Below, piece by piece: positions 38,755-41,763 of a DNA stretch of 64,000 nt. The translations under genes were made by a program, and so were the position numbers. Positions within the stretch are counted from its first letter, which is position 1, and the number at the start of each line of letters is the position of its first letter. Source of the stretch: an uncultured Candidatus Entotheonella sp. (GTDB lineage: Bacteria > Tectomicrobia > Entotheonellia > Entotheonellales > Entotheonellaceae). Location of the stretch: the NCBI GenBank assembly GCA_951828535.1, contig OX639990.1, positions 1,847,300 to 1,911,299 of the forward strand, given 5' to 3'. Under the pieces are notes generated by a model. The model ran no database searches and was not told where the DNA came from. It worked only from the letters and a program-made list of their open reading frames with translations.

Positions 38755-38792
38755 AGGAAAACCCCTCCGGGATATCCCAGAGGGGTTTTCCT
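38755..38792. terminator. Bidirectional rho-independent terminator
   Basis: A perfect 13-bp stem (AGGAAAACCCCTC / GAGGGGTTTTCCT) encloses a 12-base loop. The A- and T-rich outer parts of the stem supply a U tract in both directions, so it can end pepA and the convergent selenoprotein transcript. Confidence 0.88.
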
Positions 38793-38832: not shown

Positions 38833-39711
38833 TTACCCGGTGAATTGAACCGCCGAGACATGCGCTTCGGCGCGGTCGCGGTCCTCCTGATGCTGGTACT
38901 GCGGCGTGGCGTATCGTGGACGCCGGTCATCCGGCCCGCGCTGCGCGGTTTCCTGCCACGCCCGGTCATCCGACCACTTGAAGGGAAGCATGTTCACCGT
39001 CCCCGGAGCGGTGAGGCTGCTGAAGCCGGCAAGCGCCGCGAGCAGAATCTCCCGCTGCAGAATCGGTTGGTGCGGCTTGCCGGTGGTGTGTCCCAGTGGG
39101 TAATCAAGGAAGGCGGCGCGCGGCGGATTCACCGCCTGCGTGATATCCAACGCGCTGGTCATGCACAGGGTTGAGATTCCCGCGGCTTCAACGTGGCGGG
39201 CGAGCAGTCCGACGGACTGGTGGCACACGGGTCAAGCCGGCACGAACAGGACGGCATCGACCTCTTCAGCCGACAGGCACTCGGTGACGCGCGGGGCCAT
39301 TTCCTCCTGCACGCGCCGGGACGAATAAATGCCGCCCATGAAGGTGTAAGCGTTCGCGGCCAGGCTGCCAATGACGCCCTCGCCAACCAGCCCGCGCAGC
39401 GTGTCGATGGGAAACACGACGTTCGGATCCTGGCGGGCATCGGTCAGATCATAGGCAAAATGCGTCGCCCGCAACTCGCTAGTCGGCACGTCCATCGGAA
39501 TTGCCAGCAGGGACGTATCGTCGCGGTAGTGGAAGGCCACCTGGCGGCTGACGTAGATGCCGCCCGAGGCGACCAGGCCCAACCGACACTCAGACAACGG
39601 CTTCGACAAGGGATGCCACGGTGGGGTGTCCGCGTTGAACACCCATTGATAGGCGCCATAACCCAGCGTTTCGTATTTCTCCCGGATGCGTTCTATATAT
39701 TCGACAGGCAT
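38833..39711 (-). CDS. GrdB/PrdB-like selenoprotein (in-frame UGA = Sec160)
   Basis: A 292-residue protein of the glycine/sarcosine/betaine reductase selenoprotein B-like family, readable only if the TGA at 39234-39232 codes for selenocysteine. The N-terminal 159 residues (from ATG 39711, with GGGAGGA six bases upstream) and the 132 C-terminal residues are in the same frame. The two halves read through as Leu-Phe-Val-Pro-Ala-Sec-Pro-Val-Cys-His-Gln-Ser-Val, a Sec-x-x-Cys redox motif. The sequence after it (Thr-Ser-Ala-Leu-Asp-Ile and Asn-Pro-Pro-Arg-Ala-Ala-Phe) continues the conserved family. A small hairpin just downstream fits a bacterial SECIS. It follows an AcoX-like kinase gene. In relatives the family cleaves C-N bonds reductively; here the substrate is unknown. 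Without Sec insertion a 159-residue fragment would result. Confidence 0.85.
39205..39234 (-). other. UGA codon plus SECIS-like hairpin
   Basis: On the minus strand the TGA is followed after 12 bases by CAGTCC-GTC-GGACTG, a perfect 6-bp stem with a three-base loop opening with G. That G lies 19 bases after the UGA, within the spacing known for bacterial SECIS elements. No SelB-binding test is possible here. Confidence 0.72.
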
Positions 39712-39728
39712 TTCGTCCTCCCGGCCCC

Positions 39729-40739
39729 TCATGTCGATTCCAGACAGCGCCGCTCTCGTCCGGTCATGAAAAATCCCTGTTCGGCCGCCAGCGCCAGCAC
39801 CTTCTGAGGCTGCACGACTCGCGGCCCACCGGCCCGCAGGTACGCCGCAACACGGTCGTGCGGCCGCATCACAATCTCCCGCTCGCCGTCCAGAGCGATA
39901 GTCCCCCTCCCCGCCGGCAACTCCACCCGTTCATCGAAGTCGAGGTGCGCGTAGCGCCGCACGCCGACGGGCTGGATCAGACCGGGCGCGATCGGCGCCA
40001 GAACCGGCGGCGCCTGCGGGTCGGTCTCAATAACCATGCCGCCGCACCGGGGTGGGCTGGGCGGCGGCAGATTGCCCGCCAGCGCCATGAAGCCGATCTG
40101 CGCCGCCACGCGCTGGGTCACAATAACCATGCGAACCTTGTTCATGTCCCACACGGCGCGCGAGGCGACGTAGAGATCGTCGCACACCACGGCGTCGATC
40201 AGAGCCATATCCGCCGCTTCCCCGTTGATTTCCACCTCCAGGCAGGGCCGCTGCTCGACCGCCTCGGCGGCCGCGACCGTGCCGCTCGCTACCAGGCCCG
40301 CCGCCAGACCTGCCAGGGTGCCTTCGAGCATGTACGGAAACACGTTGTTGGTGCCGGTGGACAGCGGTAGGAGCGGAACCAAGCCGCACGCCTTGGCGAG
40401 CGCGCGGTTGGTGCCGTCGCCGCCAAGGCTGACCAGACAATCGACGCCGAGGTCCCGCATGCGCCCGGCGGCCCGTGTCGTGTCCGCTTGGGTGTCGTCA
40501 ACCGGCATGTCGAGTTGCTGCACCTCGGCATTCAGCTTGAGGTTGTCCTGGGCTTTGCCGCAAATGTTAAAGGTGTCGGGCATGGTGACGATGCGGTCCA
40601 CCCCCACCGCGTCCAAACCGAGCATGACGCGCCGTACGATGTTCACCTTCTCGTTGTTGTTGAACACCGATCCGTGGGCGACCAGGCGCCGGATGTCCTT
40701 TCCCGAAGCCGGATTGGCAATGATGCCGACGCAAGCCAC
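39729..40739 (-). CDS. ATP-NAD kinase-like protein (AcoX family)
   Basis: A 336-residue protein of the NAD-kinase superfamily. The conserved Gly-Gly-Asp-Gly-Thr motif appears as Val-Ser-Leu-Gly-Gly-Asp-Gly-Thr-Asn-Arg, and a second motif reads Ser-Thr-Gly-Thr-Asn-Asn-Val-Phe-Pro. It begins Gly-Ile-Ile-Ala-Asn-Pro-Ala-Ser-Gly-Lys-Asp-Ile-Arg-Arg, typical of AcoX proteins found with acetoin dehydrogenase genes. The function of AcoX is not established. GTG 40739 has AAGGGG upstream. The stop overlaps the region just before the selenoprotein ATG, so both are one operon. Confidence 0.83.
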   Translation of the reverse strand: MACVGIIANPASGKDIRRLVAHGSVFNNNEKVNIVRRVMLGLDAVGVDRIVTMPDTFNICGKAQDNLKLNAEVQQLDMPVDDTQADTTRAAGRMRDLGVDCLVSLGGDGTNRALAKACGLVPLLPLSTGTNNVFPYMLEGTLAGLAAGLVASGTVAAAEAVEQRPCLEVEINGEAADMALIDAVVCDDLYVASRAVWDMNKVRMVIVTQRVAAQIGFMALAGNLPPPSPPRCGGMVIETDPQAPPVLAPIAPGLIQPVGVRRYAHLDFDERVELPAGRGTIALDGEREIVMRPHDRVAAYLRAGGPRVVQPQKVLALAAEQGFFMTGRERRCLEST

Positions 40740-40767: not shown

Positions 40768-41763
40768 TTAAACGTGCAGTTCGATCACGTCTTCTTCCTG
40801 CACCACGTAGTCGCGTTGCACCATCTGACCGTCGTACTTTTCCTTGCCCCAGATGCGCGCGAACTTGAGCCGCACCGCGAAATCCTTGTGCACCGTGGCG
40901 GCCACGTCCGACACCGTGCTGCCGCGCGGCAGGGTGAACGGCGCCGTGAGGTCCGGCTTCTTGCCCGGCGCCTTGGTGTACACCCGAATCTTATCCAGCA
41001 AGGCGTATAACGCGGCGCGCAATGCCTCAAGGTTGTGCCCGTCAAAAACCGATACCGCCAACCGCGGCCAGCGCTCGCCGTATAACTCCTCGACCATCGC
41101 CCAGGAGTCCTCGCCGTCCGGGCTGTCGTATTTCGTCCCCAGCAGCATCGTTGGCCGTTCCACTACGCCGATCGGCAGATCGTCCGGGTCTGATAACATA
41201 CCGGGCGCGCCTGGTGACACCTTCCACTCAGCCAGCGTAGCGCAGGCGAACTCGATCGCCTCAAGTGCCTCGGCGTCGCTCAAATCCACGACCATGAGCA
41301 AGGCGTCCGCATTGCGCACGATCTGTTGCAGCCACGATTCCATGTAATCGCGGGAAATGGGCGGCAGATCGACGAGCTGGATCTGAACGTTCTCGTAGAC
41401 CACCATGCCGGGAATGGGCTTGCGGGTCGCGAACGGGTAATCGGCGACCTCCGTAACAGCCTTGGAAAGCGCCCCCACCAGCGCGGATTTGCCGGCGTTC
41501 GGAAGTCCCAGCAGGGCGATCTGCCCCGCGCCTTCCTTCACCACTGACGGGCCGCCGGCCCGCCGCGCTCCTCCCGATTTCTGAGCCTCCTGACGTAGCT
41601 TGGACAAGCGTCGCTTCAGGTCGGCCTGGAGCTTGTCCGTCCCCTTGTGCTTGGGAATAACCCGCAGCATCTCCTCCAGGCAAGCCACCTTCTCTTGGTG
41701 CGTGGCAGCCTGCTTGAAGCGCTGTTCGGCTTCCATGTATTGCGGTGTGAGGTTGGCGGGCAT
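40768..41763 (-). CDS. DRG-like Obg-superfamily GTPase with TGS domain
   Basis: A 331-residue GTPase. An N-terminal helical region (residues 1-65, basic) precedes the G domain: P-loop Gly-Leu-Pro-Asn-Ala-Gly-Lys-Ser at 86-93, a Thr in the switch region (Tyr-Pro-Phe-Ala-Thr), and Val-Asp-Leu-Pro-Pro at 131-135, where classical GTPases have Asp-x-x-Gly. G4 is Thr-Lys-Tyr-Asp at 210-213, a change from Asn-Lys-x-Asp. A TGS domain occupies residues 270-331 and ends Glu-Glu-Asp-Val-Ile-Glu-Leu-His-Val. The layout resembles eukaryotic and archaeal DRG proteins rather than ObgE or YchF. It probably binds ribosomes or translation factors. Confidence 0.85.
   Translation of the reverse strand: MPANLTPQYMEAEQRFKQAATHQEKVACLEEMLRVIPKHKGTDKLQADLKRRLSKLRQEAQKSGGARRAGGPSVVKEGAGQIALLGLPNAGKSALVGALSKAVTEVADYPFATRKPIPGMVVYENVQIQLVDLPPISRDYMESWLQQIVRNADALLMVVDLSDAEALEAIEFACATLAEWKVSPGAPGMLSDPDDLPIGVVERPTMLLGTKYDSPDGEDSWAMVEELYGERWPRLAVSVFDGHNLEALRAALYALLDKIRVYTKAPGKKPDLTAPFTLPRGSTVSDVAATVHKDFAVRLKFARIWGKEKYDGQMVQRDYVVQEEDVIELHV

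What the first reader, a model, noticed from the sequence alone, without database searches (positions are those of the whole stretch)
38833..39711. In-frame UGA makes one GrdB/PrdB-like selenoprotein from two apparent ORFs
The minus-strand ORFs on either side of TGA 39234-39232 are in the same frame and together match one reductase-B-like family. The junction Val-Pro-Ala-UGA-Pro-Val-Cys-His-Gln is a Sec-x-x-Cys motif. The family is known to contain selenocysteine or cysteine at this place. A standard annotation would split or truncate it.
Basis: partly seen in the sequence, partly recalled or inferred. Interest (0 to 1): 0.85.

Follow-up and report, generated by a model that had tools for sequence, protein, structure and literature searches.

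The report
Stand-alone PrdB-like selenoprotein gene
The 'stop' codon in the middle of this gene is read as the rare amino acid selenocysteine, giving one 292-residue redox protein of a selenoprotein family long known from the sea; what is less ordinary is that it lacks the partner subunit its namesake enzyme needs.

Summary
Observation confirmed, interpretation largely confirmed. Minus strand 39711-38833 is one 292-codon gene with an in-frame TGA (39234-39232) as codon 160 (VPA-U-PVCHQ). TGA stands at this position in 93 of 94 related loci, across many phyla; isolated alphaproteobacteria and an enterococcal PrdB carry Cys there. The genome (3.62 Mb, Entotheonella relative) has selA, selB, selD and a tRNA-Sec with anticodon UCA. 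A hairpin starts 15 nt after the UGA start and is conserved, with a compensatory synonymous change in 11 homologs. Both halves are under purifying selection. So this is a real selenoprotein gene.

The family is not new: Sec-containing 'PrdB' (UxxC) was among the commonest selenoproteins of the Sargasso Sea (2005) and GOS (2008) surveys. Not supported is the step from 'PrdB-like' to 'proline reductase': the protein scores 160 bits against a 300-bit PrdB cut-off, falls in a separate clade from PrdA-partnered PrdB, has no conserved neighbour, and 40 of 44 genomes carrying it encode no PrdA/GrdE-type subunit. I read it as a stand-alone Sec/Cys redox enzyme of unknown substrate, probably mislabelled in surveys. 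New member of a known kind.

The parts
39235..39711 (-). Codons 1-159 of the selenoprotein gene (start ATG 39711-39709)
   Evidence: PF07355 match to residues 36-157
39232..39234 (-). In-frame TGA, codon 160, read as selenocysteine (Sec of the U-P-V-C motif)
   Evidence: TGA in 93 of 94 related loci; Cys in L120, L121, L123
38833..39231 (-). Codons 161-292 and stop TAA (38835-38833); holds resolving Cys163 (TGC 39225-39223)
   Evidence: C163 invariant in 42 sequences; purifying selection after the TGA
39205..39219 (-). Predicted bacterial SECIS apical hairpin CAGUCC-GUC-GGACUG; two further pairs 39224-39223 with 39201-39200
   Evidence: all six pairs in 74 of 81 distinct homologs, Q-codon/L-codon covariation 79/81 against 60.6 +/- 2.3 expected
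39716..39722 (-). Ribosome-binding site GGGAGGA in front of ATG 39711
   Evidence: direct reading
39729..40739 (-). Upstream gene, ATP-NAD kinase-like (AcoX-type); ends in an ordinary TGA stop, 17 bases before the selenoprotein gene; probable operon partner in Entotheonella only
   Evidence: PF01513 38.8 bits; order kept in L020/L101 but absent near other homologs
40768..41763 (-). Obg/DRG-like GTPase with TGS domain, next gene upstream in the same direction
38762..38785 (-). Candidate terminator hairpin followed by TTTTCC, between this gene and convergent pepA
   Evidence: direct reading; part of it (3 found against 1.0 expected, so weak)

Best explanation
The gene encodes one 292-residue selenoprotein. 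UGA at codon 160 is decoded by tRNA-Sec/SelB, guided by a SECIS hairpin just downstream. The product is a stand-alone member of the GrdB/PrdB superfamily: Sec160 at the start of a helix after a strand is the nucleophile, Cys163 resolves it into a selenenylsulfide, and a cellular dithiol reduces that again. It works without the PrdA/GrdE-type (pyruvoyl) subunit that D-proline and glycine reductases need, so its substrate is probably something other than proline or glycine. Shown by computation: gene unity, Sec/Cys exchange, conserved SECIS hairpin, complete machinery, absence of PrdA/GrdE genes from most carriers. Inferred: the redox cycle, the reductant, the substrate class. Confidence by part: Sec decoding about 0.97; independence of PrdA/GrdE about 0.75; nucleophilic or redox role of Sec160-Cys163 about 0.8; actual substrate unknown.
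For: One frame with TGA at codon 160. TGA at the same codon in 93 of 94 related loci from Entotheonella, Binatota, Myxococcota, Chloroflexota, Acidobacteriota, Actinomycetota and Gammaproteobacteria. Cys instead in Roseomonas and Haematobacter (VPNCPVCHQT; VPNCPICHQT) and in prdA-linked PrdB of Enterococcus gilvus; Sec in Peptoclostridium and Acetoanaerobium PrdB. tRNA-Sec 73.9 bits (cut-off 47), anticodon TCA; selA 606 bits and selB 363 bits side by side; selD 319 bits. selA matched in 43 of 44 genomes that hold a homolog. SECIS hairpin pairs in 97.9% of cells; CAG/CTG to CAA/TTG switch pairs in 79 of 81 against 60.6 (max 67 in 1000 shuffles) when synonymous codons are shuffled; the genome's paralogs form equivalent hairpins of unrelated sequence. 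U/C160, C163, H84, D95, R172, R198 invariant; model pLDDT 92 puts residue 160 between strand 153-157 and helix 161-176. No PF09338 in 40 of 44 genomes, including four chromosome-level ones (L041, L052, L054, L057), although PF09338 does recognise a true PrdA (93.4 bits). Separate clade from PrdB plus GrdB (100/96).
Against: No protein or 75Se data. The window's own hairpin is not unusually stable for its composition (z -0.75), and its stem is shorter than in most homologs. The Rfam SECIS_1 model found nothing, but it found nothing in any control genome either. One MAG with a homolog (G048) lacks a selA match (probably incompleteness; not tested). This genome does encode three GrdE-type proteins elsewhere, so a partner in trans is possible here. 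Long branches make deep tree joins uncertain. The redox role is by analogy to studied relatives.
Confidence: 0.85

Rival explanations
1. It is the Sec subunit of a true D-proline or amino-acid reductase and works with a GrdE/PrdA-type pyruvoyl subunit encoded elsewhere in the genome.
For: Best NCBIfam match is PrdB (6.5e-47); same UxxC position as PrdB; three PF09338 proteins exist in this genome.
Against: Score 160 against cut-off 300. All three PF09338 genes sit beside their own GrdB paralogs. 40 of 44 genomes with the same protein have no PF09338. Separate clade.
Confidence: 0.15
2. The TGA is a genuine stop or an assembly error, leaving a truncated protein or pseudogene.
For: Standard annotation would see two ORFs.
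Against: Same TGA in 93 of 94 loci; purifying selection after the TGA; Cys and not a stop in Sec-free relatives.
Confidence: 0.01
3. UGA is reassigned to an ordinary amino acid (for example Trp) in this organism, or read through without selenium.
For: An in-frame UGA is present.
Against: UGA is a normal stop elsewhere, including the gene directly upstream (39731-39729); homologs have Cys, not Trp; full Sec machinery present; SECIS conserved.
Confidence: 0.01

Closest known systems
Marine 'proline reductase PrdB' selenoproteins of the Sargasso Sea and GOS surveys (PMC1088965, PMC2398784)
   Same: PF07355-class protein with a UxxC motif, Sec-containing in marine bacteria; 42 and 235 examples reported, Cys forms also known
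   Different: Those papers give it the proline reductase name; the present gene lacks a PrdA partner beside it and its clade misses the PrdB cut-off. I could not check that their sequences are this very clade
D-proline reductase PrdB of Clostridia and Enterococcus (TIGR04483)
   Same: Homologous over nearly the whole PrdB length (residues 29-247 to profile 17-235); Sec or Cys at the same place, UxxC then His
   Different: 30-36% identical; motif UGTCHR against UPVCHQ; PrdB of E. gilvus is linked to prdA and prdC, this one is not; about 45 extra C-terminal residues with a conserved PQYQ motif
Glycine/sarcosine/betaine reductase GrdB, GrdF, GrdH (PF07355)
   Same: Homologous to the C-terminal half, same Sec position; three such proteins with UxxCxxC or UxxGxxS occur in the same genome
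   Different: About 430 residues and always beside a GrdE-type gene in this genome; equivalog and exception cut-offs failed by far
NCBI 'glycine/sarcosine/betaine reductase selenoprotein B family protein' of Roseomonas and Haematobacter
   Same: 33-35% identical over 86% of the query; likewise without prdA/grdE neighbours
   Different: Cys instead of Sec, CxxC

Membership tests
Bacterial selenoprotein | In-frame UGA aligned with Sec or Cys in homologs | tested here: met
Bacterial selenoprotein | SECIS hairpin directly downstream of the UGA with a G in the apical loop | tested here: met
   conserved 6-8 bp stem, loop GUN, loop 21 nt after the start of the UGA; covariation seen
Bacterial selenoprotein | selA, selB, selC and selD in the genome | tested here: met
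Bacterial selenoprotein | Selenium shown in the protein | not testable with these tools
   needs 75Se or mass spectrometry
GrdB/PrdB superfamily (PF07355 GRDB) | Pfam gathering score 22 | tested here: met
   44.6 bits
D-proline reductase PrdB (TIGR04483, equivalog) | Curated cut-off 300 bits | tested here: not met
   160 bits; kin 160-190 bits
D-proline reductase PrdB (TIGR04483, equivalog) | Partner PrdA (pyruvoyl proprotein) in the operon or genome | tested here: not met
   none beside it; the three PF09338 genes in the genome sit with GrdB paralogs; none in 40 of 44 homolog-bearing genomes; model detects real PrdA
D-proline reductase PrdB (TIGR04483, equivalog) | D-proline to 5-aminovalerate activity | not testable with these tools
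   no assay
Glycine reductase GrdB (TIGR01917) | Cut-off 602 bits, UxxCxxC motif, about 430 residues, GrdE neighbour | tested here: not met
   48.8 bits, motif UPVCHQS, 292 residues, no GrdE neighbour

The most novel reading that the evidence does not exclude
The widespread 'PrdB' selenoprotein of marine and soil bacteria is a separate, PrdA-independent selenoenzyme family with its own, still unknown substrate, and has been misnamed proline reductase in surveys since 2005.
Probability: 0.5. Interest if true: 0.5.

Novelty: new member of a known kind. Interest (0 to 1): 0.33.

Why it matters
Standard annotation cuts this gene at the UGA, losing its active site, so the protein is easily missed in genome tables. 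The family is common in ocean and soil bacteria. If it works without PrdA, as gene content suggests, one of the most abundant marine selenoprotein families has a wrong functional label, and its substrate is an open and testable question.

Tried and rejected
Rfam SECIS_1 on the genome: no hit, but none in any control either, so uninformative. Sequence search of PDB with the protein and with a 42-row profile: nothing credible. Foldseek against PDB: none with E <= 0.001; VIA-align best Z 7.8, within the background stated by the tool, so no fold assignment. Conserved gene neighbourhood as a clue to substrate: no neighbour recurs in more than a small part of 80 loci (one large single-linkage cluster mixes antisense ORFs with unrelated genes), and operon-like partners differ by lineage. 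Apparent multi-Sec paralog (L113, '3 TGA'): only one is Sec; the second is the true stop overlapping grdE, the third lies beyond it. Reassigned UGA and pseudogene rejected (see rivals). No paper in the library was found that discusses PrdB without PrdA in aerobes; this does not show that none exists.

Full report
What was claimed and what is there. The minus strand from 39711 to 38833 reads as one frame of 292 codons with a single internal TGA at 39234-39232. The start at ATG 39711 is preceded by GGGAGGA and matches the start of homologs. The neighbour upstream (39729-40739) ends in an ordinary TGA stop, so UGA is not simply a sense codon here.

Is the TGA selenocysteine? All lines agree. First, conservation: a scan of 84,980 species genomes gave 80 kept loci, and with the loci from the window's own group 93 of 94 matches that cover the position have TGA and one (L109, a distant paralog in a genome that also has TGA copies) has TCA, Ser. 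A few of these loci are copies of the same genes held in two collections. The scan used patterns built with Cys, so it was not biased towards TGA. Second, exchange: relatives on plasmids of Roseomonas and Haematobacter have Cys in the same motif (N-C-P-V-C-H-Q), and canonical PrdB proteins have Sec (Peptoclostridium, Acetoanaerobium) or Cys (Enterococcus gilvus) at the aligned place. Third, machinery: the genome carries tRNA-Sec (73.9 bits; ARAGORN anticodon TCA), adjacent selA and selB, and selD. selA is matched in 43 of 44 genomes in which a homolog was found, while only 1 of 14 control genomes passed its cut-off. Fourth, SECIS: a hairpin CAGUCC-GUC-GGACUG starts 15 nt after the first base of the UGA. 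Six pairs form in 97.9% of cells over 81 distinct homologs; sliding the partner drops this to 0.8-46%. The third base of the Gln codon and the first base of the Leu codon switch together (CAG/CTG in 68, CAA/TTG in 11, CAG/TTG in 2): Watson-Crick in 79 of 81, against 60.6 +/- 2.3 (max 67 of 1000) when synonymous codons are dealt out anew. These sequences are related, so this number is not a strict probability. Paralogs with different amino acids around the Sec form the same kind of hairpin from unrelated letters. The window's own hairpin is not exceptionally stable by itself (z -0.75). Fifth, selection: dN/dS against the nearest Entotheonella copy is about 0.18 before and 0.27 after the TGA.

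What family. PF07355 matches at 44.6 bits. The nearest curated family is PrdB, TIGR04483, 6.5e-47, but at 160 bits against a cut-off of 300; close and distant kin score 160-190. A tree of 53 proteins puts the window protein and its kin, including a second paralog type of this genome (L107) and the Cys forms, on one side and PrdA-type PrdB together with GrdB on the other (100/96; midpoint root, long branches, so deep joins are uncertain). The model is confident (pLDDT 92, pTM 0.92): residue 160 lies between strand 153-157 and helix 161-176. No solved structure is clearly related.

Does it need a partner? D-proline and glycine reductases use a second subunit (PrdA/GrdE) that carries a pyruvoyl group and binds the substrate; the Sec is thought to attack the substrate carbon, with a selenenylsulfide as later intermediate (reviewed in PMC10298544; the review itself calls parts of this hypothetical). 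A GrdB/GrdE pair without the pyruvoyl Cys has been proposed to cleave C-F in monofluoroacetate (PMC10838667), so the superfamily is chemically broader than amino acids. Here the gene has no such neighbour; the three PF09338 proteins in the genome each sit with another GrdB paralog, and 40 of 44 genomes that carry the window's protein have none, four of them chromosome-level assemblies. PF09338 recognises genuine PrdA (93.4 bits), so the absence is not blindness of the model, and MAG gaps cannot explain 40 of 44. Neighbours are not conserved. In Entotheonella it follows a TGS-domain GTPase and an NAD-kinase-like gene in the same direction, but only there.

Mechanism proposed. UGA decoding by SelB and SECIS; Sec160 as nucleophile, Cys163 as resolving thiol, recycled by a cellular dithiol; substrate unknown and probably not proline. 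Steps after translation are inference from relatives and from invariant residues.

Known or new. Sec-containing 'PrdB' with UxxC was the third most abundant known selenoprotein family in the Sargasso Sea (42 genes, PMC1088965) and among the most abundant in GOS (235 Sec, 110 Cys, PMC2398784). A 2026 review still lists the Sec family as D-proline reductase, TIGR04483 (PMC13188914). So the gene is a new member of a known kind. The absence of PrdA/GrdE in most carriers is the part a specialist might not expect; I found no paper on it in the held library, which is not proof of novelty.

Noticed in passing
G000:C1 203857-206349, 1576810-1578683, 2939681-2943521 (L111, L115, L113/L125, L116-L119): The same genome encodes three full-length GrdB-type selenoproteins (UxxCxxC twice, UxxGxxS once), each beside a GrdE-type gene, and near the third a GrdA with one in-frame TGA: a Stickland-type reductase set in an Entotheonella relative.
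   Followed up: partly
L107 / L127 (G000:C1 1217104 onward): A second stand-alone PrdB-like selenoprotein (TPTUPLCTHT) with a long C-terminal extension and, about 0.6 kb downstream, an electron-transfer-flavoprotein-like gene.
   Followed up: partly
L109 1510-2160: A paralog with Ser (TCA) in place of Sec (TGA), in a genome that also has two TGA copies; one base apart, perhaps loss of Sec.
   Followed up: no
L017 (G000:C1 3250621-3251538): SelD is fused behind an NADH-dehydrogenase-like domain and has Cys (CGGCGAK), not Sec, at its active site.
   Followed up: no
L094: A homolog sits in a record titled 'Klebsiella pneumoniae' MAG; the protein groups with environmental bacteria, so the title is probably wrong.
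   Followed up: no
L126 7761-11101: selA and selB lie side by side; a 2025 paper (PMC12858407) describes an Entotheonella RiPP operon with SelA and SelB homologs. Here I saw only one selA over the cut-off, and did not check for RiPP genes beside it.
   Followed up: no
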